From contig NC_011693.1 of the NCBI RefSeq assembly GCF_000150955.2, positions 428,047 through 492,046 on the forward strand: DNA of 64,000 bases, read 5' to 3'. A model generated the notes under the pieces. That model searched no databases. It was not told the DNA's origin and saw only the letters and a program-made list of their open reading frames with translations. Every line of letters begins with the position of its first letter. Position 1 is the stretch's first letter. Both the position numbers and the translations under genes were made by a program. This DNA is from Phaeodactylum tricornutum CCAP 1055/1 (taxonomy: Eukaryota > Bacillariophyta > Bacillariophyceae > Surirellales > Neidiaceae). Positions 3,807 through 22,121 of this stretch are shown in pieces.

Positions 3807-6581
3807 CTACATTCCGTCTTCGATGAATGCTTGCCTACGTAGCCACTTCGCATAATTTGGTCCGAATCGATCCCACTGGTGAACCACCCGAGATCGTGTA
3901 CCGTCAGCTTCGGTAAAGAAACCCTCATCGTCGGTCAGATTGTATTGGAGACCAATCCAGAGCTTTTCTCCTGCGCCATCGTATGGAATGTTGGCAGCTA
4001 CTCAAAGACGTGGCGCAGAAGGGTGAGGCCGAAGTCGTTTTCAAAACCATGATTTTCATTGCCACTAAAATCGTACCTTGTAGTTCGGAAATGCTTGCAT
4101 TTCTGGCTTTCATATTCTTGACATGCTGGTGATAGGTGCGTGCCCCCGGAACACCAACGGTATTAACGGTACCCCCACTCCGGTTCCTGATAGCTGTGGC
4201 GAATGGTAGCTGTCCGGAATAAAATAGGTAGTTGTGTATACTTTGGTCGTCTCCGTTGATGTCAAATCGACATTTTGGATCTTCGATCCAAACCTTCATC
4301 TCGGCGTACATTATTTCGAGGTACTTCAGCATGGCGGCTCGAGTACCGGCAGTCGTCCCCGAACAAAGCATTGTCTGATTGTACTCCACGCCCTTGCATG
4401 CTTCGATAGGCCACTGTGTGAGCCAATGCTTTGTCGTTTGCCGGGGATCTTCTTCGAACACGTGCAGGCCCTGCACTGCCGGTGATCCTGGACCGAATGG
4501 GTCTCGCTGAAATATTGAGTCTCGAACGTCCATAATCAAAACAGGCCCGGTACATGTATCACAATCTTCCAGCCAATCCTTTATCAAAGGAAAGCGACTC
4601 CATCGAATCTTGATATCAGCATACGGAGCCGCGCACTGCGTTTTCTTGAAGATGTCGTTTTGTTTGTTGGCATCGGAATACGAACAATTCACCCATTGCT
4701 GTATCTTGGGAACGACATTACGGGATTCGAAATAGTCCAGGACTTCTTGACTCACATCAGGCGCCACTCCTAGTATCACATGGCCTTTGTAGCCGCTGTT
4801 TCGCAACGAACCGACAAATTGAGTGTATACCCTTAGGTCGTACCCAGACGCCATTCCTAGAACGGTGGCGGTAGAGCTATCACCCATCACATCGATTGTC
4901 TCGTAGAGAACAGTGTCAGTCAGATCAACCCCAGTATCGGTGGCGTTTCGAATCAAGCTACTTTCTGGTGGTGCATCCTCGCGTATTGTCTCCGAAACAA
5001 CGGAAGAGACCTGCAAGGCTGCCTTTTTTTCTCCTACCCCATCTCCTTGCATTACTTCCTCGTCGTGTACAAACGACTTTCCGTTTAGCCACATTCCATG
5101 AAATTGTGGACCAAAGCGATCAAATTGGTGTATGACACGAGATCGGCTACCATCGGCTTCAATAAAAAAACCTTCGTCGTCAGTGAAGTTGTAGTCTAGC
5201 CCAATCCATAGTTTTTCGTTGGCTCCGGGGTACGGTACTTTATTGGCTATCGTTTCGTGCACTCCAAAAGGTGAGACCGAGTGATTGTCTTGCCGTATTC
5301 TGATCACCACAACAACAGTAACATACCTTCCTGAATGTCTTTACCGTACAACTCTTGCTGTTCCTTGGTGTGTTGTTTCCACGTCCGGGCACCATCGACG
5401 CCAACCGTGTTGACGATTCCACCGGAGCGGTGGGGTATAGCGTTGGCGAAGGGTAACTGTCCGGAGTAGAAAAGGTAGTTGTGCATGCTCTGATCGTCAC
5501 CGTTGATATTGAACCGGCACTTGGTATCGTTAATCCAAACTTTCATTTCAGCGTACATGATTTCCAAGTATCGGAGCATGGCGACTCGGGTACCGACGGT
5601 CGTTCCGGAACAAAGCATAGGCTTTTCGTACTGGACTCCCTTGCACTCTTGGATTGGCCACTTGGTCAACCAGTGTTGCGTCGTCTGTCACGCAATCCAG
5701 AAGCGTACAGCGTGAGTACTTTTTTTTGTAGACCCGCTGACTGTAAAATCATACTATTGGATGGAGGGGTTCGCCCAACCTTACCTGAGTAACGTGTTCT
5801 TCAACTACCTGCAAGCCGTATACCGTAGGAGAGCCTTGTCCGAAAGGATTTTTCTGAAAGTACGAATCGCGGACGTCTATAATGAGAACCGGACCGGTAC
5901 AGGCTGCGCACTCTTGCAGCCAATCTCGAATCAAAGGAAAGCGACTCCACCGAATCTTAATGTCCGGATAGGGATGGGCACAGGTTGTCTTTTGAAAAAT
6001 ATCGTTCTTGCGATCGCTGTCCGAGTACGTGCAATTGACCCACGTTTGCACTTTGGCAGTCACGTTGCGTCGACGCAAGTATTCCAGGATTGCGGGGTCG
6101 ACGTCGGGTGCCACACCCAAAAAAACGTGACCTTGGAATCCGGAACGTCGCAACGACCCCACGAATCTTTGGTAGACACCCAGTCGATATCCGGAGGCCA
6201 TGCCCATGACGGATGCCGAAGAAGTGTCCCCGTGCCAATCGGTACCTTGGTACAAGATAGGATCCGATACGTCCACTCCCGTGTCCGTCTGTGTTCGAAC
6301 TGTGGTAGCGATGGTTGCGGGGCGTCCCACAATTGCATGGTGCGGGATGGTCCGACTGGTATCGGTAACGTTGCGGACGGAATTTCTCGTTGAGTGCTGC
6401 TGCTTTTGTTGTTTCGTTTGTCGTTTAGGCGGGGGCCGACCCCGTTCGGAATCCAATTCTCGAACGCGCGCGAGAATTCGGAGGATTGCGACAAGACGGC
6501 AATGTGGAAGCCGATGCTGACCAATGCCGTGAATCCTGCCGCTCCCAGCAGAAGGGTCCGCATGGACTTTGTCGTCAGCAT
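3807..6581 (-). CDS. Internally duplicated GT-A-like glycosyltransferase
   Basis: Proposed model: complement(3807..3997, 4077..5261, 5327..5684, 5785..6288, 6441..6581), about 792 residues. Two homologous units of about 370 residues lie head to tail in one reading frame. Each has TDTGVD near its start, GMASGY, then WVNCSYSD or WVNCTYSD, then a DxD-like LIMDVRD or LIIDVRD followed by FQ..PFG, then CSGTTAGTR or CSGTTVGTR, INGDDQS, and a terminal GEKLWIGL-type or NEKLWIGL-type block. This is the pattern of nucleotide-diphospho-sugar transferase-like GT-A proteins. Both units keep a phase-1 intron at the same place, before the last block (5262-5326 and 3998-4076); an additional phase-0 intron (5685-5784) is in unit 1 only. 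The signal anchor (about residues 7-28 from 6581: MRTLLLGAAGFTALVSI) lies in another frame from unit 1. It joins with an intron from a GT donor at 6440 to an acceptor at 6289 (152 nt) or to nearer acceptors 38-44 nt away. The frame of unit 1 has no ATG of its own before the domain. Donor sugar unknown. Confidence 0.65.
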
Positions 6582-9186: not shown

Positions 9187-11559
9187 TTACTCTGCCGCCT
9201 TTTGCACATTTCCGGAAGCATCGATGACAAAGTGGCCGGGTTCATCGAGAAGATACTCGGTAGTCTCGTGTTTGGTCATGGTGTAGCCCCGAATCGCTAC
9301 GTGTTCCGGATAATTCTGCTCAGGATCCAACTCTTGCAGCTCCCATCCCTTATTTGTGACCACTAAACCATCGACTGTGACGAACGTGTCTTTGCCCGTC
9401 CGAATCACTAAAGCTCCGTCCACTTTCAAACTCTTAATTGTCAAGTGATGTCCGTCCATCACGAGCGCGGATCGCTGCGTGAGTTCCATCTCCCCCTGAA
9501 TCTTCTCCCGGTATGCTTCTTGTGAGATACCAAAGGCTGAACCCAAAACAATCCGTGGACCGGGCGTCACCGGAATGCCCCCCACGACGACTAAATCGTC
9601 CGCCATCGTGACTGGAACCTTGACGCCGAGCGAAGCCAGCTTGCGTTGGTTCTGAATATACTTATCCGATTCTGCACTCGACATGGTACCGGGCGCCGTA
9701 CTTCCGGCCTCGACAGCGTCTTGGCCAGCATCCAAAGCATTCTTGGCTGGCGAAAAGGTAAACCATCGATCAAACAAGGTGAACCCAATGTTCGCTTCGG
9801 CGCCCATTTCCTTTTGGAAGAGCTTTGGAATATCCTGCATCATACATTCCAGACGTGTCGGCTTTTTGAATTCGGTCCGACTGGCATCCTTATATTTTGG
9901 ATTGACAAATTCCAGCACAACACCCTGGTCCTCCCCACGCAGCGTTTTGCCGTACGCCGTTAGTTCAATAATTAGATTATTGGCGTTTCCTGGAAAGGGA
10001 GAATATCCCGTTTCCGGATCGGCAACATCTCCCTTGCCATCACCTTGAGTGCGCAGCAACGGATCCAATTGGTTATATTCCACGTTAATCACTAGTGATT
10101 TGTTGGGATCCGTTTTGTGTCTGTTGCAGTGGAGGAAGCACGTTTGTAAGCAGGCCGACACGGGTCAGATTGGTTTCGATGAAGTTCTCAAACTATTCCT
10201 TATCACACGCAAATGCGGAAATGGCATACTATACGTACTCGAGCCGAGCAATGGCACCCGCTGCTTCACCCGCCAGTCTCGGTATGCAAATGGAATTCAT
10301 GTGAAAGCCGCGGGTGACACTGACACCCAAGGCCGGAACGACAGAATTGATCACTAAAGCATTGGTATCTTGCAAGAAGACCACGTGAGTTTTGCCTTGG
10401 TCCTGCCACTGATCCACAAGCCCCTCGCGGTACAGAAGGTGGTGTACGTCGCCGTGCCCGTGTGGTTTCGTCTCCACGGTCCATCGATCTTTGTCGTCCA
10501 GGGCCAACCCGGCGGCGCCGTCTTTCAAAGCCGCCACCTTGTCTTGCGTGACAATAGTAACCATGTCAATGTCCATGCCGAAATACTTATTGTCCTCGAG
10601 GAGCTGTCGTGTCAAGGGATCTGTATCTCCGGAAGTCATAATGACGAGTGGGATTCTCAACTGTTCATTGCCCGTCCGTTGCCGAGCTGTATACTGCATG
10701 GCTTGTATATAGCGCACATAGGTTTCCAAATACGACTTGTTGGTACACAGGTTAGTCTCAAGTGACAGTTTGATACCGGAATAGCCAAGGCGTTCACCCA
10801 ACCCGCCGGCAACGAGGACAAAAACGGCGGTACCGCAGACGTCGAGGCCAGCTTGTTCCGCGTCGGCAAAAGCCATGGTGCTGGTGGCTGGTTCGTTGTC
10901 GTAGCTGAGGGATTCGCCTTGCGGCACGACGGCTTCGTATTCATCGAAAGGATTGAGTCCTTCAGCAGATTCTCGCAACAGCACTTTGGCTTTGGAAAGG
11001 TAGGCTGGTAAGCCTCCAGGATAGGATTCTTCCAAATCAGCCAACTACGGATAGTATGTACAAATGGATTTGTTCCGTGAGTGCGATTCAGAGTTGACAG
11101 CCCCGCGTCCGTATATGGATTTGGCAACGCAAGACTAGCTCAGATGTTTGATTTACGTACTTGTTCGGCCAGACGTTGTTTGTCGGAGTCGTGTAGTCCG
11201 GGAGGGGGCCAGTGTCCGTATACGTGTTGCTGTGCGCCATCCGTGTCGTACTCCACGAGACGCTCCAAGGCGTTCCGTCCTCGTGGCGACAAAAGGGCCA
11301 GATTCTCGTCCGTCAAGCGATCGCTGCTAGTCGAAGACGACGACAGATGCAAGGCCGAGGTCAAGGTTGATGGCGTTCCCCCACCCCGAAGACCGAACGA
11401 CGCAAACGGGCGAGAGGACGTGAACCCGAGTAGAGACGAGTGGGATAATCTCGTCGTCGCTCTCCAGGATGAACGATCACTTTGGTTTTTGGCCGGGGTT
11501 CCGAACGACGATGCGGTGCTCCATAAGAGCAAAAAGGAAACAGCAATGGCTAGTCTCAT
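9187..11559 (-). CDS. USP: UDP-sugar pyrophosphorylase with plastid-type presequence
   Basis: Model: complement(9187..10120, 10239..11044, 11161..11559), 712 residues; both introns (118 and 116 nt) join in phase. It converts a sugar 1-phosphate and UTP to a UDP-sugar and pyrophosphate. The nucleotide-binding loop AGGLGERLGYSGIK is at about residue 213. Further family blocks are MTSGDTDP, KPHGHGDVHHL, FLQDTNAL and VINVEYNQLDPLLR. The blocks and the long C-terminal beta-helix-like part match plant USP rather than bacterial GalU. The first exon adds about 130 residues absent from plant cytosolic USP. It starts with a signal peptide (MRLAIAVSFLLLWSTASS) and an ASS-F-GTP cleavage motif followed by a Ser/Thr/Arg-rich transit-like stretch, so plastid import is likely. 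The product could supply UDP-glucose for sulfolipid or other plastid glycans; that use is inferred. Confidence 0.85.
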
Positions 11560-11560
11560 G

Positions 11561-11578
11561 TTGTTGTTGTTGTTGTTG
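11561..11578 (-). repeat. (CAA)n in the 5' leader of the USP gene
   Basis: On the minus strand six CAA-type triplets run up to the base before the ATG at 11559-11557. A CAA-rich leader is unstructured and leaves the start codon accessible; whether it matters for translation here is inference. Confidence 0.6.
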
Positions 11579-12125
11579 GCAATTTGCCGTCACGATAGTC
11601 TCGCGCTTTCTTGAATCAGGAATTGGGCAGTGTCAATTCGAAGACGCACAAAAGCCAAGCGGTTCCGAAAGACGTACGAAGATAACTGTGAATCCTATAC
11701 TTGATTGATCTCTGTACCGAAATGTACCTAGAGTCAGAGCTTGACTGTGAACAAGGTGTATACCACCAAACCGCTCCATTCTCAGGACGGGAAAGACGCA
11801 TTCGTCGGCACCCCTCGAAAATCGGTTCCAACTCGTTCGTCACTAACACTTGTCCCAGACATTGAGATGGGAATCTAACAGTAAAGGTACGCCACAATCG
11901 TGAACCAACCGGCATACACGACCGACAGTCGACGCCATCGTGGAACGGCGCGTGCGAATCTAGCTCGCCCCCCCCCCCAAAAACAGTATCTTTTCAGACC
12001 TTTTGGGCTGCTTCTACCATACCCTCTCTCGCAAACCAATACCACCGTATACGTACCGTGCTTCATAAAATACATCTTTTCCCCTGTGAACAAGTCATTG
12101 TTGGGTTGAGTCGAAACTTGTCCCA
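11579..12125. other. Divergent intergenic region between USP and the fusion gene
   Basis: Contains a TGACTGTGA element at 11742-11750 (TCACAGTCA in the direction of USP) and a run of C at about 11970. The last 50 bases resemble the region just before the ATG of the sister gene at 16258 (CATTGTTGGGTTGAG against CATCGTTGGGTTGCC), so the tandem duplication began in the 5' UTR or upstream. Confidence 0.45.
11742..11750 (-). promoter_or_regulatory. TCACAGTCA element upstream of USP
   Basis: Reads TCACAGTCA on the minus strand, 183 bases before the USP start codon. One of several copies of TCACWGTCA or TTACAGTCA near 5' gene ends in this window. Role inferred only from recurrence. Confidence 0.3.
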
Positions 12126-15100
12126 ATGTCGACAGAAAAGGATTTTCCGATGCCGCCTTCCCAGGTTTACAACGAACAGCAGGTGAGAACGAAGGAATAG
12201 TTTGTATTGCTTCGCGTGAGGGGCGTGAGCGCTGTGATTGGTTGGTCGGTTGTATCATAATTCTCTCTATGTGAGCGTAAACAAACTTCTGTCTACTACA
12301 GTGTTCTAATGGTGATCCTTTGTTGCATTTTGCCGAATTTTGGTGCACTCATATTCTCACACTGTGGAAATTGTCGCTCGTCACACTTTGCTCTCGGCTC
12401 GCTGCCATTAGATTGCGGATTCGTTCGGGACCGCTTTTGATCAGCCCAAAGTCTTGGAAGGATACGTGGACGATAATGCCGACGCCGAGCCCTTTCGTTA
12501 CTTGTCTCATTGGTACGTGACGGACCGAGCGAGTCCGACACCAATGCAGCGTGTGGCTTTGCCGGCGGATTATGTCTTTGCACAAAAATCCCTCTCGATT
12601 GCGGGTTGGTTACAGCCCTCCACGTCGGCCTCGAAGTCGCCCGCTTCCAGCAACCTTAGTATTACTGCACCGGAACCCATCTTTGTTACCCTGGACGCTG
12701 CCGAATACCTCGCCTTTGATCGAACCCGACGTTACCGAGGATACTGGGTTGGCACTGCGGACGCCCTTTACTGGCTGCAGCAACCCGAGACTATGCGCTG
12801 GAACGGCGCTCTCTCGCAACAAGACTTGCACGTGGAATGGCGGGCCGCGCTAGCTCTATTGAGTAACTTGTTGGATCTTGTCTTCACTGACGAACGCACT
12901 GCGGCTGTGTACGCTCGTTCGACTATGTTGGATACCTACAAGGCACTCACGGATCAGCGCGGATACGAACCGTTTGACAAGGAACTGCTAGTGCACTTGC
13001 GCAAATTGGTCAAGCCACATTTGCTTGAAGCACACCCGGCCTTGTTGCAGGATTGCAAGTTTCTGAGATCCCTCATGACATACAAACCCCCCAAGTTGGA
13101 TAGCCTTACACCAGAACGCATTCTGGAATCCATTGCTGTTGCGGAAGCGCGGTCCCAGATTCATCCCTGGGGTGAGTCAAAAATTGCGCTGGATGAGCTT
13201 TCTGACTTGGACAACTTGCCATTGGCACTGTCAGGAGAATCAGAAAAGCACATGAAGACAAGGAACTTGCAAGCTGGGAAGAAGAGAAAAAAATGTCACT
13301 GGATTGAGGAACAGCAAAGAGGACAAGGTACTCCAAAGGCATCCTATATGCAGCTTGTAGCTGGGCCTGACAATGATGGGTACAATATACAGTCAGAAAA
13401 GACCAAGTCAAGCCGGCAACACCCCTTCAGAAGCAATCATAGTGCCACATTTGCCAGTGATACCACTGTTGCTTTGGACCCACCCTTGGCATCAGCTTCT
13501 CCTTTGGAGGTAGCCTTGAGGTCTCCACTGGATCTAGACCAGGACCTTTTGGACAAAGCCATCAAACTGAAAGATGTGGCAACAGGCCCATCCATACAGG
13601 CACCAAATGCATCTAGTGCTCCATCTTCTTCAACAGAATCTGCAGGCTCTGCAAGCAAGGAATACTCTTTATCAGATGAGAGCACCAGCAATCCAGGTGT
13701 TTCAAAAGCTGCAGTTGCTGCCCATCAATCACAGAAAAGGCCCAAACTACTCCAAAGAAAGCATAGAAAGCCTCAACCAATGAGAGGCTCCAGAATGTTT
13801 GAAAGTGATGAGACTGAAGCTGTTGACCAGATCCAAATGCCTACTACTTTGGCTTTACTGTCACCAATGGAAAGTCATGTCTCAAAGCTTATTCAAGGTA
13901 CTGACTATGACCAAAATCTTTCCTTGCGTGTTATTTTGGCAGCCATGAGGCTCCAGAAGGAGTATCTTTTAAGAAAGTCCAAAAAAATGGGTCATAAAAT
14001 ACCTCCGGCCCAAGTCCAAAAGACAGTATGCAGGCTGCTTGGCGTTTCACCCCAAACATACTCCAGAATTGTGTCAGGATACCTCCAAGATGGCTCAATT
14101 TATTCAACTGGGGTGGATGGAGAAGGAAGGGGAGGAAATACTCAGGCCAAAGAGACTAGGATCCCAAGAACACCAGCTGTTTCAGTTGCTGTGCGTGAAT
14201 TTATTGACAAAGAGTGGAAGAAACAGAAAAGGGTGACTGCCCGCCAGCTGTTGGACTTCTTTGTTGAAAGCGGTATTCTCCATATTCCAACTAATCAGCA
14301 TACTGGTTTGTACCAGAAGAAAGACTTTCAGGCAGCTTCCCGTAATGTGCGCCGGTATGTGGAAGATGGAGGCTACTTGAGAAGATGGGGAAACAACCTC
14401 ACTCCAGATCGTAAGCTTATATTTAAGAGGCATGAGTATCTGCATGATTTCTTTGCCAATCAAGCTATGCCCAAGGCGAAACAATATCGCAATGTGTATG
14501 TGGATGAATGCTTCATTTGTGAGCACCACCACAAGACAAAAAGTGAATCAGACATTGAAAAGGCCAAGTCTAAACACACAGGCCAACATCACTTTGTTGT
14601 TGCTGTCCAGGGACCTGATCCCAAAGTTGATGACCCAAAAAACTCATCAGAAAAGGCTGGACTGGTGCCAGGAACAGTGTGGGGGATTCATTGTGGCAAC
14701 CATCAAGGGTTTGACTGCAGCAATTTTTCTGCCTGGTGGAAAGGTCAGCTGCTCCCCAATCTTCACCAGCCCTCTCTTATTCAAATGGACAATGCAGAGT
14801 ATCATAAAGGTTATGGAAGTGAGGTTCCAAAGTGGAATAAGCTGAGCAAACAGGAATGTATTGAATTCCTCCTATCCAAAGGGATTGAGATAGGGCCACT
14901 TTACTCTGCAATTGTGCTTAAAACTTTGGTGAAAGACTGGATTTTTGCAAATGAGAAGTATGAGTGTGTGAGGCTTGCTGAGGAACTGGGTCACAAAGTT
15001 CTTTTTATTCCACCCTACCATAGTGATCTGCAGCCATTGGAACTTATATGGGCTGACATCAAAGGGAAGACTTGCAGAAATTCTTCACTTGAGCTGATGC

Positions 15101-15327
15101 ATCAAACAATTATGAGAAAGTTCCAAAACTTACAGCAGTCTGGGCAAGATACTATCCAGGACAAAATTGGACAGTGTGTCAAAAAGGCAGAGGAGTTTTA
15201 CAGTGACATTCCAGCTGAGGACGCAGCTGAGGAGGCTTTGACTGATAAAGAGGCCAATTATTATGGTACAGTAGGTGTGACCTTAGAGGATGAGTTTGAG
15301 GGTGATACTGGGGAACACAGTGATTGA
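12126..15327 (+). CDS. Host paralogue fused in frame to a Tc1/mariner-like transposase
   Basis: Model: 12126..12182 joined to 12412..15327, 990 residues. Exon 1 (MSTEKDFPMPPSQVYNEQQ) and exon 2 up to about 13890 are collinear with the gene at 16258-20427, including the phase-0 intron. The residues up to IHPWGESKIALD are nearly identical to the sister; afterwards identity drops but landmarks persist (FASDTTVA, PLDLDQ-LLDKAI, RPKLLQ). From about 13900 the same frame continues into a transposase: a helix-turn-helix-like RLLGVSPQTYSRIV, then YVDECF (first Asp, about 14502), LIQMDNAEYH (second Asp, about 14788) and PPYHSDLQPLELIWADIK (Glu, about 15038). Asp-to-Glu spacing is about 84 residues, longer than in classical Tc1. 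No stop interrupts the 2.9-kb exon. Codon and base use change sharply at about 13195. It may be a captured transposase, a chimera still expressed, or a silenced locus whose frame has survived. Confidence 0.7.
12337..13010 (+). repeat. Direct duplicate of 16787-17460, offset 4450 bases
   Basis: Runs from the last 75 bases of intron 1 into exon 2 and is about 97 percent identical by eye to the downstream copy, with no indels in the coding part. Flanking homologous sequence (exon 1, and exon 2 after 13010) is far more divergent, roughly 80 percent or less. Confidence 0.8.
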
Positions 15328-15930
15328 CAGTAAGGACTCAGTGTTCTACTTAATGAGCATTTTTAGACCATTACGCAGTATTCAAGCAACCCTATCCCAT
15401 GTTGAGAATCCTTAAGTTAGAAGGGGCCGTCACTTCTTGAATTATAAACATTACCTAGAGTGGACCCAAGTTGTTCAATAGGGAACCAGGGATTGTGTAC
15501 AAACTTGATATGTAGGAGAGAGTGAGAGTCAATCCTGAGTACAGTTGGTCCAAGACAAGGTTTCTTCACAGGACAAATGTCACCCACCAAAGAATCTAAG
15601 GGCAGGATCAGCAATCTCACAACCAATGGTGGCGTCAACTGGGAATACCATAGTAAAATGTGCAATGAGTTCCAAAATTGGCCTTGTGACACCCAAGCCA
15701 AGCCTGTCAAAACTAATTTGTGTCTGTTTGCCCATAGAAACCTGCAACATTAATCAGCTAAATTGTGCCTGAGGGACCAAAGGATTGTTGATACTTTTGT
15801 AAGCAGATAAAACACAACTCATAACTTGTCCCCACCATAAAGGGATATTGAACCCCATGTGCTCTTTGTAGGGTGTTCCTAATTAAAAAAATACATAAAT
15901 TACAGTTTCCACAGTCTGACTCTAGCTAGC
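13890..15930 (+). mobile_element. Tc1/mariner-superfamily DNA transposon, ends not resolved
   Basis: Holds the DDE transposase part of the fusion gene (about 13900-15327) and about 600 bases of non-coding, CpG-poor 3' flank. The left edge is placed where similarity to the sister gene ends; the right edge where CpG frequency recovers. I could not identify matching terminal inverted repeats or a TA target duplication, so the limits are approximate. The transposase frame is whole, and all three acidic catalytic residues are present. Confidence 0.55.
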
Positions 15931-16257
15931 GTTAGGACTATCACGGGGGGCATTGAAACCCGGATGTCCGCTAACTTACAGTTAGCGGACATAAAGACGG
16001 GGATGTCAGCCATAACGACGCATGGCATGGTTTGTATAGAAATGCGCTACCCGGACAGTGGAGTCCCGTTGCTGCATCACCGCTTTATTCACTTACAGTT
16101 TAACATGCATTGAAGACAATATAACAAGCATTCATAGTCATCCTTGCGACTACTCTTCCGCTAAGCAAGTCATACGAGGTATACTCGGCGATCCCAAAAC
16201 ACTTTTCTCCCTTCTACGAACCATCGTTGGGTTGCCAGTGAGTCGGACCTTGTCACG
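15328..16257. other. Region between fusion gene and sister gene
   Basis: The first 600 bases are CpG-poor with no convincing coding frame. Bases 15931-16257 return to normal CpG content, contain the 15964 palindrome, and should hold the promoter and leader of the gene at 16258. Confidence 0.5.
15964..15992. repeat. Perfect 13-bp inverted repeat with 3-base loop
   Basis: Arms ATGTCCGCTAACT (15964-15976) and AGTTAGCGGACAT (15980-15992) around TAC. It lies just past the right edge of the CpG-poor zone and about 265 bases before the ATG of the sister gene. It could be a transposon footprint, a protein-binding palindrome or a hairpin in a leader RNA. Confidence 0.7.
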
Positions 16258-19200
16258 ATGTCTACAGAAAACAATTCCCCGTTGCCGCCGTCCCAAGTTT
16301 ACAACGAACAACAGGTGAGTGCGCTGTGTTTGGCGCAATTCGAAGGCGACGTGACGATTTTGTGTTAAAGGGGAGGCAGCAATGAAATAAGTTTCCACTA
16401 GCTTCTTGTATGGGAAGTACCCTTCTGGCATCGACGCTATGGACTGGGAATTGCAGCTAAATGTATGTTCAGCGGTAGTCACCGGAGGCTGCAACGCCCC
16501 TCACGCCAAACCTGAAACCCTGGTGGATGTCTCCTGGGCACCCGACGATGATTAAGATTGGAAAGAGGCCTTCTCTATACACCGACCATCCAGATTATGA
16601 GACGACGCATCAATCAACTCAATCTTCAGGATACGAACAGCTACCCACTCCCCGTCGTTCCCTGCCTGGGAACGTTCGGTCGCACGCAACGATACCCTGT
16701 TCCCGTCGAGTTGATTTGTACGTGTTTGTATCGCTTCAAAAGCCTTCCTGGGGTGTCCTGATGACAATCTTTCGTCTTGTTACGTTGTTTTGGTGCGCTC
16801 ATATTCTCACACTGTGGAAATTGTCGCTCGTCACACTTTGCTCTCGGCTCGCTGCCATTAGATTGCGGATTCGTTCGGAACCGCCTTCGATCAGCCCAAA
16901 GTTTTGGAAGGATACATGGACGATAATGCCGATGCCGAGCCCTTTCGTTACTTGTCTCATTGGTACGTGACGGACCGAGCGAGTCCGACACCAATGCAGC
17001 GTGTGGCTTTGCCGGCGGATTATGTCTTTACACAAAAATCCCTCTCGATTGCGGGTTGGTTACAGCCCTCCACGTCGGCCTCGAAGTCAACCGCTTCCAG
17101 AAACCTTAGTAGTACTGCACCGGAACCCATCTTTGTTACCCTGGACGCTGCCGAATACCTCGCCTTTGATCGAACCCGACGTTACCGAGGATACTGGGTT
17201 GGCACTGCGGACGCCCTTTACTGGCTGCAGCAACCCGAGACTAAGCGCTGGAACGGCGCTCTCTCGCAACAAGACTTGCACGTGGAATGGCGGGCCGCGC
17301 TAGCTCTATTGAGTAACTTGTTGGATCTTGTCTTCACTGACGAACGCACTGCGGCTGTGTACGCTCGTTCGACTATGTTGGATACCTACAAGGCACTCAC
17401 GGATCAGTGTGGAGACGAACCGTTTGACAAGGAACTGCTAGTGCACTTGCGTAAACTGGTCAAGCCGCATTTGATTGGAGCGTGCCCGGTCTTATCGGGG
17501 AATTGCAAGTTTTTGAAATCCCTCATGGCAGCCAAACCCTCCAAATCGGGTAGCCTTACACCGGAACGCATTCTGGAATCCATTGCTGTTGCGGAAGCGC
17601 GGTCCCAGATTCATCCCTGGGGTGAATCGAAAATTGCATTGGATCGACCTTTCGACCCGGATGACTTCGCACCGGAAGTATTAGGGAAGTCGGAAAAGGG
17701 CGTGGAGACGAGCATCCCGCAACCTGGGAAGAAGAAGAAGAAGAAGCGAAAAGTATCAGACTGTCTCACGGAACAGCAAAAAGGCCAAGCCAATCAGAAG
17801 ACGTCCCGTGTTCAGCTCGATGCTGGTATTGCGGGTGATGTGTGCATTGTACCGTCAGACAAGAATACGTTCTGCCCCCTCAAAAAGATCAAAAGACCCA
17901 CGTTCGCGAGTGATACCACTGTTGCGTCGGAACCACCGTTTTTGGCGTCAGCTTCTCCTTTGGAGATAGCGTTGATGACTCCGTTGGACCTGGACCAGAC
18001 CTTGTTGGACAAAGCTATCCAACTGAAAGGATCAGTAATGGTCTCGTCAACCCTCACGCCAAGTACGTTTATCACTTCATCTTCTTCAACAGAATGCGCC
18101 AGCGGAGCAAATTCTTTATACGGCTCAGACGACAATGTTCCTAGCCTGCACTTGAAGCGCAATAGAAAGGCATCCAACAAGCGTAAGGCTGATATCAATA
18201 TGCTGAAGACGGCCCAGAAGGCGCATTCCGCCGAAAGCGGCACAGTACAGTCAAAGGATGGTGATAAGGGAGGTTTGCGTCTGCTGGCTGACACGGAGAA
18301 AGCAGCGGATGCTGTGAATACTCAATGCCACGCCGATGCTCACCGCCTTAAGACGTCCAAGAAGGGTCGGTCCGACAAAAATGACATGGCAAGTTTGAAA
18401 GACACAGAATCGTCGATCGACAGAGCCGATGATCCGGGCCTTTCATGTACGCGCTTACCACTGAAAAGTGGCGACAAAGCTGCAGGTGCTGCTTTTGAAT
18501 CGAGGGAAAGGCCTAAGCTTCTTCAAAAAACGCATAAAAAGCCTCGTCTTTTAAAAGAGTCCAACCCGTTTGAAGACGAAGGACGTGAAGCCGTCGTCGA
18601 GCAGAGGGTCAACCTCGCAGATTTGCCAGCGCAAAAAAAGGCCGAACCGATGTCGCCAACTATGACCATGAAAGGTGTTTCGACTTTGAGAAATGAACCA
18701 AAGTCTACGAAGTCATACGCGTTGGATAGGAAGTGTTTGTCTGGTCCTATTGTGCAAAATACAAAACGAATGAGAGCCCAAATGGTAAGCAGATGAGGTT
18801 AGGACTCTGGCCGGAGGAAATAGTGTCTGATAGTTGAATTTCTCTATATCGCAACAGATGCGCCTTCGTGATTACTTGAGTCCACGCCCTCTTCGTACCG
18901 ACAATTATGAGCACTGGGAAGCTATCAAAAGCCGTGGTCACTCGTTAACGGACGAAGAGACAGTTATTTCGCTATTTAGACTTGTCATGAAAGATTTGGA
19001 CTTGGCGTCAGAACCGCTGGAGCTAGCGTTGGTGATTGTCGAAGCTTTTCGTCAAAGCTGTTGCAAACGCGAGAACGATGCGGTCATAAAACTTTTTCGT
19101 TTCAAGAAGGCGATAATGGCACAGAAGATATTTCACGACTGGTTCCGCCACGCTCTCGAAATTTTAGAGGGCTATCAAAAAGCTGGAACGAGCTTGGATG

Positions 19201-20427
19201 GAACGATCGCTCTGTTTTTGGTCTTATCCATTGTCGACTTGATTGCTGATTTTAAAATCGTTAAAAGTGCCGACACCTTAGCTAAACTGAAGGACGAACG
19301 GGGTGTGGATTGGGATTCGATCCTGATCGAGGTGAGTGCTGATGACCTTTTCATTCTGGAATTAAGCTTGGATTCCTCATATGGAGGCTTGCTTTTCGTA
19401 GGTATACATTGCTGCAATCAAATCGAAAAACGACTCTCTCATGACGGCTTACATGCGGGCAAAGTTACGTTTGGAAGGAATCAAGGCCCAAGATCGCAAA
19501 GATTTAATCTCAAATTCACTGTCCCCAAGAGACCAGATCACATTGAGCGTTCCAAAACCTGACGGCGCGGTTTACGCTACGCCAGCAGAAACGGAGAGGA
19601 CTCTCTCCGTTGCCGTTGAGAACAAAAAGTTGAATTCGATAGACAGTGGCGAGAACCAAATGGCAAAACATCAACGGTTGGCCACAAAAGAGGCAAATGA
19701 CAAACGGCGTGCAAAAGTTCTTGCTGCTATCGCTCAATCAAATTCACTGCAGGAGAGGAACGGATTGGAAAACAAAGCGAGTGATTTAGCGGTAGGCAGA
19801 AGCTTTAATCGCGTACCCCGTAAAAAGAGTGCGTCGTCACGCAGACTGCCTCCGAAGATTTGGGGGAAGCCAAAGGAGATTCATGACAAGGACTTGGCTG
19901 CGTTGTGGGGTTTCGAAGAAGTTTCCCGTAAGATGATGTACAATTTTTCGAGCAAAGGACATGTTATAGCGCCGAGCGATACGTCACAACTTGCTTCGAA
20001 GGCGAAGATTTGGGGCACCAAATCCGAACGCCCTGTGCCCAAAGCGCCCAAAAATCGTACGGCGGCGATCAGCGCTGAACATGAAAGGCAACCCGATGGC
20101 ATATTAAATACAACCTACAGTAAGCTGGTAGGGAACGGGCACGTTTCTGTACAACGGGTATCCACGAATCCGAACGGTAAGCTGCATGGTATGTCGGTAG
20201 GCAAAACTGATATGCTGCCTGTACATTGTTCATCAGCCAGGCCGTCATTGGAAAATCCTTTGCTCGATGGATTGGCACCTTCAAATGAAATATTACGTCA
20301 ATCCAGGGGCGCTGACGGAGTGATATTACCGGAAGCGAATTCTTTGGGTCGTGGACGGGGTCGAGGTAGGGAGAAAACACTGCCAGCTTGGATGCTTAAG
20401 GAGGAGCATTCGAGGGCAAGTCATTAA
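16258..20427 (+). CDS. Uncharacterised nuclear-type protein, intact sister of the fusion gene
   Basis: Model: 16258..16314, 16862..18784, 18858..19331, 19402..20427; all joins in phase 0, about 1159 residues. I do not recognise the family. Exon 1 encodes MSTENNSPLPPSQVYNEQQ. The N-terminal 300 residues are the part shared with the gene at 12126 (landmarks MDDNADAEPFRYLSHWYVTD, FDRTRRYRGYWVGTADALYW, LVHLRKLVKPHL). A long polar, Lys/Ser-rich middle includes KKKKKKRK, a likely nuclear signal. Exon 3 is a helical stretch (DEETVISLFRLVMKDLDLAS onward) of ARM- or MIF4G-like character. The C terminus is basic and ends with GRGRGRGREKTLPAWM, an RGG-like tail. A nuclear or RNA-linked role is a guess from composition. 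Intron 1 (547 nt) is over twice as long as in the paralogue but shares its last 75 bases. Confidence 0.7.
16787..17460 (+). repeat. Direct duplicate of 12337-13010
   Basis: The downstream partner of the high-identity tract. CpG content here is normal on both sides of the tract, unlike in the upstream copy. Confidence 0.8.
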
Positions 20428-20714
20428 TAGATACTAACTGTAAGTAATTTTGAAAACGTACAAAACAGACACCTGTTCTTGTTGAAAGGTGTTCTACACT
20501 AATTAAAGATGCTCCAAAGATCGCTTCTCGCGACATGAACCTTCGCGGCCGTGTTTTGCATTTTGTCTTGTAGTTGTGACAATACTTTGTAGTGCGGCCG
20601 TGTCGCCTGGTGGCCCAAATGTTACGCAATAGTCTTGTACATTGGAAAATGATAAAAATAGTACTGACTGTGATGATAATTTGTTCCAGCACCACATAGG
20701 TAATAATTTTCGTA

Positions 20715-22121
20715 TTAGAATCCAGCTTTCATGGGGTTACGCAAACACAAGATTTTGCCGCCAGGTCGTGTTGCACAGGCTTCATCCTTGGCGTCTTTAA
20801 AGGCTTGCTTCTTGTCGTTGGCAACGGCCCGCAATTCCAGCGCCTTGGCTTCAATCTCTCTGGCGGTATTGTCGGCGTCGGCAAAATCGGCTTTAGCAGA
20901 GCGCGCGCGTTCGTCTCGGACATCTTGGGATTCCAGCGGAGAGGAAGGATTGTCTGACGAAGAAGCACCACCACCACCACCAAAAGATGGAAGGGCGGGC
21001 ATAGCAATCTTGGGCATATCCACATTGGGAATATCGACCTTCGGTGCTTTGATATCGGGGAAATCGTAGCCATCCGTTGCCATTTTGGGCATGGAAAATT
21101 TGGGCAAGTCGGGCATCTTGATGTCAGGTGCTTTGAAATCGGGAATGGTAATGTCGGGAGCCTTGAAGTCTGGAATGGAGATATCGGGGAGTTTGAGATC
21201 CACCGAAGGGACCGACGGCAGCTCCACACTACTGCTCGCTGGCGCCGCAGCTTTCTCTTCTTGAGCAGCCTTGGTACGTTCGGCGGCAGCTTTTTGCTTC
21301 TCGAGCTCCGCTTGACGCCTCGCCTCCTTTTCGGCCTTTTTGGTGGCGGCCTCTAATTCCGCACGTGCTTTGTCCTCGGCCTTTTTGGCCTCGGCAGCCG
21401 CCTTTTCTTCCGCTTTAGCTGCAGCCGAGGCAGCGTCGTCTTTGGACGAATCTTCAAAGGGATTAAAGGACGGAGGGGCTGGCTTGGATGAGGACGAGGC
21501 GGAAGTATCCAGAGTTGCGGACTTGATGGCATCCGAATATGAAGGCATGGAAAAGTCCATGGAATCTATTCGATCCGCGATCAGTACCGATGAGGTTTGG
21601 GGGAGTAGATCGTCTGCGTTGGCAAGGTCAAGCAAAGTTCGGACAACGGCAAAGGAGGGTGAGAAATGAATTACGAAAGCGACGATGAGGCTCGCAACCT
21701 CCCTCACTTGGAAGCAGCAGGCAAGGATACCGACGGGGAGATTTTCGAAGCACTTGCTCCAGTCTTCTCAAGATCTCTGCGTCTGAACCGCAGAGTCGTA
21801 CGCATCACTCCTCACAATCAATTAACATCTAACTACAGACACACACAAACACACACCTGCGGCGCCAGTCGTCCAAGTAGGTTCCGGAGCCGCCACGGCG
21901 ATCTGTGCGACCAAAGAAACTCCCGCAAAAGCCGTTGCCACGGGTCCCCACCAAAACGAGGATGCGTGTGACTCCTCGGCTCGCAGTGCGGAAGACACAG
22001 TCCGGACCGAATCGGGATTTGACCCAGGCCGAGCATTGGTGTGACTGTGAGTCTGTGGCACAAAGGCATCGACGGAAGCAATTGTCAAGGCCGCACTGAC
22101 TGCAGCAAAGGAGAACTTCAT
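20715..22121 (-). CDS. Plastid-targeted coiled-coil protein with PDFKAPDI-type repeats
   Basis: Exon 1 is 22121..21857 (88 codons, phase 1). It starts MKFSFAAVSAALTIASVDAF-VPQ, a signal peptide with a plastid DAF-VP cleavage motif, then a transit-like stretch and a second hydrophobic segment (about residues 49-69). Exon 2 begins at 21613 (acceptor GCAG) or 21565 (acceptor ATAG). Both keep frame, so one intron of 243 or 291 nt is certain in principle but its acceptor is not. Exon 2 encodes a long Ala/Glu/Lys coiled coil (about residues 120-200), then a run of near-identical units built on PDI-x-IPDFKAPDI and MPKIAMPALPS, a Gly run and a second acidic helix ending at 20715. The repeats resemble the P-D-x-x-x-P pattern of AHNAK-like proteins. 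Function unknown; a structural plastid or thylakoid-associated protein is plausible. Confidence 0.65.

What the first reader, a model, noticed from the sequence alone, without database searches (positions are those of the whole stretch)
12126..15327. Host gene duplicate fused in one open frame to a DDE transposase
The first 590 or so residues are collinear with the neighbouring gene at 16258-20427 (same exon 1, same phase-0 intron), and the last 480 are a Tc1/mariner-like transposase with D, D and E in place. The 2.9-kb exon has no stop. Transposase capture into host proteins is a known route to new DNA-binding regulators, and survival of a long frame through a sequence that has lost most CpGs hints at selection or very recent origin. 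The Asp-Glu spacing of about 84 residues marks an uncommon branch of the superfamily.
Basis: partly seen in the sequence, partly recalled or inferred. Interest (0 to 1): 0.8.

Follow-up and report, generated by a model that had tools for sequence, protein, structure and literature searches.

The report
Diatom gene fused to transposase
In what looks like the diatom Phaeodactylum tricornutum, part of a duplicated gene has been joined in one reading frame to a mariner-like transposase whose DNA-binding half is still kept while its cutting half is eroding, which is what one expects when a cell turns a jumping-gene enzyme into a DNA-binding protein of its own.

Summary
Exon 1 (12126-12182), a phase-0 intron and one stop-free 2916-nt exon (12412-15327) join about 492 residues of a tandem gene duplicate to about 496 residues of a DD83E Tc1/mariner-like transposase; the joint is at about 13831-13837, not 13890. 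P0069, predicted from a separate contig, has the same fusion with 16 substitutions and one extra codon over 844 aligned residues. The fusion is old: the host linker differs from the neighbour at 30% of non-CpG sites. Only about 13.0-15.9 kb has lost its CpGs; 12412-12999 keeps them and is about 97% identical to the neighbour, as after gene conversion. Selection is uneven. The transposase DNA-binding half evolved no faster than stand-alone copies (18 fusion-only changes against 25 and 25), the catalytic half much faster (69 against 14 and 18; Fisher p=1.4e-7). A host-derived block has dN/dS of about 0.17. I read this as an exapted host-transposase fusion that kept DNA binding and is losing catalysis. 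Not shown: transcript, protein, DNA target, or an orthologue in another species. A new member of a known kind; the literature searches listed below showed no earlier diatom case.

The parts
12126..12182 (+). Exon 1 of the fusion, 19 codons, ATG start, ends CAG|GTGAGA
   Evidence: 48 of 57 nt identical to the neighbour's exon 1; same splice phase
12183..12411 (+). Phase-0 intron, 229 nt; only its last 74 nt align well with the neighbour's 547-nt intron (98.6%); the other hits are 13-24 nt long
   Evidence: splice letters
12412..12999 (+). Host-derived N-terminal part, likely gene-conversion tract: 2.9% divergence at non-CpG sites, CpGs kept (55 in 588 nt; 51 in the neighbour)
13000..13830 (+). 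Host-derived linker: 13000-13113 diverged (19% at non-CpG sites), 13114-13175 identical to the neighbour, 13181-13824 diverged (29.6%) and CpG-depleted
   Evidence: CpG o/e 0.06 at 13181-13850
13447..13572 (+). Conserved 42-codon block inside the diverged linker: 83% aa identity to the neighbour, dN 0.10, dS 0.60, no CpG left
   Evidence: scan P 0.0004
13831..13837 (+). Joint: last host-like codon ends about 13830, transposase likeness starts at the ATG codon at 13837
13828..14367 (+). Transposase DNA-binding half (residues 1-180 of the first row of A1); sub-threshold helix-turn-helix match (HTH_23, E 0.0015) at about 14020-14094; no faster than stand-alone copies
14368..15237 (+). RNase H-like catalytic half (residues 181-470): fold predicted, D/D/E kept, fast evolving, D1-D2 interval 94 residues against 110 in the two relatives measured
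14503..14505 (+). Catalytic D1 codon
14788..14790 (+). Catalytic D2 codon
15040..15042 (+). Catalytic E codon (83 residues between D2 and E)
15325..15327 (+). Stop codon TGA of the fusion
13000..15900 (.). Island of CpG depletion (o/e 0-0.6 in 250-nt bins, window 1.08), read as long-standing methylation
   Evidence: methylation itself not measured
16258..20427 (+). Full-length neighbour (source paralogue), 1159 aa; exons 16258-16314, 16862-18784, 18858-19331, 19402-20427; intron 3 placed from P0071

Best explanation
An exapted host-transposase fusion gene. Step 1 (seen in the sequence): a diatom gene was duplicated in tandem, and only its 5' part (exon 1, intron 1, most of exon 2) is present upstream. 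Step 2 (seen): that part is joined in frame to a Sailor-like DD83E transposase at the start of its conserved DNA-binding region; the N-terminal stretch of the stand-alone copies is gone and no inverted repeats are recognisable, so I take it to be immobile. Step 3 (from sequence statistics): since then the frame has stayed open, the DNA-binding half and a host linker block have stayed constrained, and the catalytic core has been relaxed, while parts of the 5' half have been overwritten by gene conversion with the neighbour. Step 4 (inferred, untested): the protein is made, enters the nucleus and uses the transposase DNA-binding domains to bring the host N-terminal part to DNA, most plausibly to inverted repeats of the resident transposon family or sites derived from them, as a regulator or repressor without efficient transposition.
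For: Three-way comparison with two intact stand-alone copies, L030 and L032: in the DNA-binding half, 18 fusion-only changes against 25 and 25 (174 sites); residues 181-330, 43 against 5 and 8 (150 sites); 331-470, 26 against 9 and 10 (140 sites); Fisher p=1.4e-7 for DNA-binding half against 181-470. With L031 in place of L030, p=3.5e-5. Relative-rate tests, 5 outgroups x 2 comparators: catalytic half faster in 10 of 10 (p<=0.013), DNA-binding half not significantly faster in 10 of 10, the halves different at p<0.05 in 7 of 10. DNA-binding identity of the fusion to L030, L031 and L032 is 0.56-0.57, no lower than that of L030 or L031 to L032 (0.51-0.53); a neutral load large enough to explain the catalytic half (between 0.10 and 0.15 per site) would lower it to between 0.39 and 0.44. 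Host block 13447-13572: dN/dS about 0.17. No stops where the randomised model expects 3.2 in the host linker at half the differences (P 0.036) and 7.3 in the transposase half at a third (P 0.001). 33 of 117 family-conserved positions are lost, the most of the 36 rows, while D, D and E are kept. The fusion is also open in P0069. The host protein matches only itself and the fusion in the own genome at E<=0.001.
Against: No transcript, protein or DNA-binding data. CpG depletion suggests long methylation, which in this diatom marks mainly transposons and repressive chromatin (PMC9998398 section 9). No orthologue was found outside P. tricornutum-like assemblies. The CpG-outcome test I hoped would show selection (18 silent against 6 changing) did not separate the fusion from decayed copies (24 against 14 in seven copies). 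Intact free copies are also stop-free (0 seen, 10.4 expected for L030 to L031) and two decayed copies show fewer stops than the model expects (L034 5 of 10.9, L035 4 of 16.4), so stop-freeness counts only for the time after the fusion. In 3 of 10 relative-rate comparisons the two halves did not differ significantly (p 0.064, 0.14, 0.64). P0069 differs from the window at 1.9% of residues.
Confidence: 0.63

Rival explanations
1. Silenced relic: a duplicate ran by chance into an old transposon copy, was methylated, and happens not to have acquired a stop yet.
For: Strong CpG depletion over 13.0-15.9 kb including the repeat in the 3' flank; family-conserved catalytic positions are eroding; P0069 differs at 16 of 844 aligned residues plus one extra codon; the CpG-outcome test does not separate the fusion from decayed copies; L034 and L035 show that old copies can have fewer stops than the neutral model expects.
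Against: Domain-specific constraint, a host block with dN/dS 0.17, zero stops against several expected, while five of the seven decayed copies tested are within the neutral range (9 stops seen, 14.3 expected).
Confidence: 0.23
2. Two genes, not one: the host half and the transposase half are transcribed and kept separately, and the open joint has no product.
For: No RNA evidence over the joint; the transposase has an ATG codon at 13837.
Against: The N-terminal stretch of stand-alone copies is absent at the joint and no inverted repeat is recognisable. The frame is continuous from host exon 2 into the transposase, and the indels in the well-aligned part of the linker (12, 9, 3 and 9 nt in the nucleotide alignment) are multiples of three.
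Confidence: 0.07
3. Active chimeric transposase: the fusion still cuts and moves resident elements, with the host part steering it.
For: D, D and E present and the RNase H fold predicted with good confidence; resident elements with inverted repeats exist.
Against: The D1-D2 region lost motifs otherwise conserved in the family (the S-L-W-D-P and G-D-Y-H-K-V-F stretches), has 94 instead of 110 residues, and evolves fast.
Confidence: 0.05
4. Assembly artefact joining two loci.
For: None beyond the general possibility.
Against: P0069 comes from a separate 3283-base contig and spans the joint with diverged letters.
Confidence: 0.02

Closest known systems
SETMAR/Metnase (primate SET gene + mariner transposase)
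   Different: Here the host part is a tandem duplicate joined inside an exon, the transposase is DD83E Sailor-like, the host is a diatom, and gene conversion and CpG depletion shape the locus.
Host-transposase fusion genes of vertebrates (Cosby et al. 2021, e.g. KRABINER)
   Same: Transposase DNA-binding part joined to a host domain; KRABINER binds DNA and regulates expression (as cited in PMC12062965 passages) and the fusions tested are under purifying selection (as cited in a PMC8700633 passage). The paper itself was not read.
   Different: Those join host domains by new splicing (recalled); here the joint is inside one exon. No transcription-factor activity has been tested here.
DD82E/Sailor superfamily of IS630-Tc1-mariner transposons (PMC8533490: abstract, results part 1 of 2, passages)
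   Same: D-E spacing of 83 lies in DD78E-DD111E; DD83E is reported from Stramenopiles among others; the resident relative L030 has 24-28 nt inverted repeats, within the reported range.
   Different: The fusion has no recognisable inverted repeats, a shortened D1-D2 region and no stand-alone N-terminus. L030, the one element end pair read closely, is not flanked by TATA.

Membership tests
Host-transposase fusion gene | Host and transposase coding sequence in one open frame | tested here: met
   971-codon exon without internal stop; also in P0069
Host-transposase fusion gene | One transcript or protein over the joint | not testable with these tools
   no RNA or peptide data on hand
Host-transposase fusion gene | Immobile, without element ends | tested here: inconclusive
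   best ungapped inverted-repeat match 19 of 28 (L030) or 17 of 30 (L032) between 11001 and 17000, not calibrated against chance; one locus only
Host-transposase fusion gene | Purifying selection on the fused protein | tested here: met
   sequence statistics only; the CpG-outcome test was not informative
Host-transposase fusion gene | Present at the same place across species | tested here: inconclusive
   found in one further predicted protein from what looks like the same species; no other species among the candidates scored
DD82E/Sailor superfamily | D-E spacing 78-111 | tested here: met
   83 intervening residues, the commonest value, 17 of 36 rows
DD82E/Sailor superfamily | Catalytic D, D and E | tested here: met
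   D, D and E kept; 31 of 36 rows are DDE
DD82E/Sailor superfamily | Terminal inverted repeats of about 23-57 nt | tested here: inconclusive
   present in resident relatives L030 and L032; none recognisable at the fusion
DD82E/Sailor superfamily | TATA target-site duplication | tested here: inconclusive
   not seen at L030, the one intact element whose flanks I read closely; cannot be tested at the fusion
DD82E/Sailor superfamily | Monophyly with reference Sailor transposases | not tested
   no reference Sailor sequences were on hand, so I say Sailor-like
SETMAR-type gene | SET methyltransferase host domain | tested here: inconclusive
   no Pfam match in the fusion's host half at E up to 1 or in the neighbour's first 280 residues at E up to 10; no usable model (pLDDT 32.5)

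The most novel reading that the evidence does not exclude
A Sailor-like transposase has been turned into a sequence-specific nuclear factor in a diatom, in a gene that is partly overwritten by conversion from its parent and partly under long-term CpG methylation yet protein-level selection. It would bind the ends of resident DD83E elements and act in trans on them and on nearby genes, a home-grown transposon guard or regulator.
Probability: 0.28. Interest if true: 0.72.

Novelty: new member of a known kind. Interest (0 to 1): 0.55.

Why it matters
Host-transposase fusions are known mostly from animals (recalled). A case in a diatom, from a transposase superfamily named in 2021 (PMC8533490), would widen the reach of transposase capture, and it comes in an alga in which genes can be knocked out (DNMT5 knockouts in PMC9998398). 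The locus separates selection on DNA binding from selection on catalysis within one protein, and pairs the CpG-depleted fusion with its CpG-rich full-length parent 0.9 kb away, which makes the effect of methylation on mutation and coding constraint directly measurable.

Tried and rejected
Recent origin: rejected (intron and linker divergence). CpG-outcome test as proof of selection: 18:6 in the host linker, but 24:14 summed by hand over seven decayed copies against their nearest reference (L033, L034, L036, L037, L038, L040, L041); L035, left out of that sum, is 9:2; so not used as evidence. Frameshift counts from nucleotide alignments were noisy even between intact copies and were not used. 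Inverted repeats or target-site duplication at the fusion: none convincing. Host-half fold: AlphaFold failed (pLDDT 32.5 on an alignment of 3). Pfam gave nothing for the fusion's host half at E up to 1 nor for the neighbour's first 280 residues at E up to 10; the C-terminal stretch and P0070 gave only chance-level matches. Solved structures: one match each at E 2.6 and 0.61, taken as chance. A recalled likeness of its secondary-structure order to RFTS/RFD domains is only a lead. Viral contigs: 60 pattern matches, none confirmed. Rfam at gathering threshold: nothing at 11000-21000. Literature: the listings (10 of 10 papers shown; 12 of 21; 15 of 221; 4 of 4; 2 of 2; 3 of 3) showed no title or abstract start about a domesticated Sailor/DD82E transposase or a diatom host-transposase fusion; this covers only the held open-access library, and supplementary tables could not be read.

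Full report
What was checked. The window is G000:C25:428047-492046 of a genome of 27,450,724 bases in 88 contigs. Its size fits Phaeodactylum tricornutum (27.45 Mb haploid, PMC6604790 passage); the organism is an inference. The frame 12412-15327 is open to TGA. Exon 1 (12126-12182), the phase-0 intron (12183-12411) and exon 2 give a protein of 990 residues. The neighbour at 16258-20427 encodes 1159 residues in four exons; I moved its third intron to 19332-19401 because P0071 shows a different splice pair than my first guess.

Host half. Against the neighbour the host half is a mosaic. The last 74 nt of the intron are 98.6% identical. Within exon 2, 12412-12999 differs at 2.9% of non-CpG sites, 13000-13113 at 19%, 13114-13180 at 1.8% and 13181-13824 at 29.6%. 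The rest of the intron gives only hits of 13-24 nt, and upstream of the gene only about 19 nt before the ATG still align. Near-identity that includes intron and silent sites, beside strong divergence, is what gene conversion leaves. The low-divergence patches keep their CpGs and the diverged ones have lost them (55 CpGs in 588 nt against 2 in 665 nt). CpG o/e is 0.06 at 13181-13850 against 1.08 in the neighbour at 17631-18600, and stays low through the transposase to about 15900, where a piece of a dispersed repeat lies at 15735-15885. I read this as long-standing methylation; methylation was not measured. [quoted passage not shown]

The joint. Host likeness ends at about 13830 and transposase likeness begins at 13837, at the start of the region conserved in the family. 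The N-terminal stretch of the stand-alone copies is missing and no inverted repeat is recognisable. P0069, predicted from a separate 3283-base contig, carries the same joint with 16 substitutions and one extra codon over 844 aligned residues, so an assembly error is unlikely. By domain the substitutions are 9 in 345 host, 1 in 180 DNA-binding, 4 in 290 catalytic and 2 in 29 tail residues. With the published silent diversity of 0.0166 (PMC6604790 passage), neutrality would predict about 32 amino-acid-changing differences; I count at least 17 by hand (Poisson P 0.003). This assumes that P0069 is an allele of the same population, which I could not check. The neighbour's counterpart P0071 differs by 15 residues and a 5-residue indel outside the mis-spliced stretch, counted by hand. 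Both host-protein searches scored only about 7,990 candidates.

Selection. The main test is a three-way count among the fusion, L030 and L032. In the DNA-binding half (174 sites) changes unique to each are 18, 25 and 25. In residues 181-330 (150 sites) they are 43, 5 and 8, and in 331-470 (140 sites) 26, 9 and 10; Fisher p=1.4e-7 for DNA-binding half against 181-470. With L031, whose first catalytic D is G, the counts are 19, 29, 28; 35, 12, 8; and 24, 12, 14; p=3.5e-5. Relative-rate tests with five outgroups and two comparators agree in the main: catalytic half faster in 10 of 10 (p<=0.013); DNA-binding half not significantly faster in 10 of 10 (one slower at p=0.047, one faster at p=0.07); halves different at p<0.05 in 7 of 10, the other three giving 0.064, 0.14 and 0.64. 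Terminal branches for the fusion are 0.22 in the DNA-binding tree (rank 28 of 36 from the longest) and 0.60 in the catalytic tree (rank 8 of 36; the four longest are P0053, P0032, P0035 and P0040), against 0.07-0.22 in the catalytic tree for P0001-P0003. In the host linker the block 13447-13572 has 35 of 42 residues kept, dN 0.10 and dS 0.60, between flanks at 40-45% identity (scan P 0.0004); it has no CpG left and 13 silent codon changes, so it is not a converted patch. Over the whole diverged linker (210 codons) dN is 0.36 and dS 0.79 (NG86; YN00 gives 0.42 and 0.55).

Open frame. If the observed differences are scattered at random over extant relatives, the host linker should carry 3.2 stops when half of the 209 differences belong to the fusion (P of none 0.036), and the transposase half 4.6 at one fifth or 7.3 at one third of the 519 differences from L030 (P 0.009 and 0.001). 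Which fraction arose after the fusion is inferred from the linker's divergence, not measured. Calibration: five decayed copies (L033, L036, L037, L038, L040) show 9 stops where 14.3 are expected; L034 and L035 show fewer than expected (5 of 10.9 and 4 of 16.4); the intact pair L030/L031 shows none of 10.4. Free elements are thus also kept open while they move, and the argument rests on post-fusion divergence.

Results against. The CpG-outcome test was uninformative (18:6 in the fusion's linker, 24:14 in seven decayed copies). The host half could not be modelled and matches nothing named. Methylation, if present, argues for low expression. No RNA or orthologue evidence exists here. Of the 117 positions conserved in at least 85% of the 35 relatives the fusion has lost 33, the most of all 36 rows, so full transposase activity is unlikely.

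Conclusion. The most likely reading is a host-transposase fusion gene kept for its DNA-binding and host parts. Its product, targets and effect are inferred. In kind it belongs with SETMAR and the vertebrate fusions; the Sailor-like source, the diatom host, the in-exon joint and the conversion/CpG-loss mosaic are what is new here.

Noticed in passing
L030-L041 (own genome; C6, C12, C3, C10, C15, C31, C2, C17, C23): A resident Sailor-like family with at least two groups and different inverted repeats. L038 and L039 carry shortened copies 99.7% identical over 1501 nt, a sign of recent movement or exchange.
   Followed up: partly
L031 (C6:715137-716582): An open stand-alone frame (same lineage as P0002) in which the first catalytic D is G; the same change is seen in Nitzschia proteins P0022 and P0023.
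   Followed up: no
window 16258-20427: The parent gene encodes a 1159-residue protein with no convincing Pfam or solved-structure relative; besides P0069 and P0071, which look like the same species, only one distant relative (P0070, 39% identity over 31%) was found among about 7,990 scored candidates per search.
   Followed up: partly
window 15735-15885: Piece of a dispersed repeat with about 40 further listed places in the genome, within the CpG-poor stretch.
   Followed up: no
window 4190-4440 and 5437-5687: Direct repeat, 76% identical over 251 nt, with a second pair at 4450-4627 and 5797-5974.
   Followed up: no
P0071, residue 147 of the neighbour: The other allele or strain of the neighbour has M where the window's neighbour has K; the fusion also has M, as expected if conversion between the two genes continues, or from a shared older state.
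   Followed up: no
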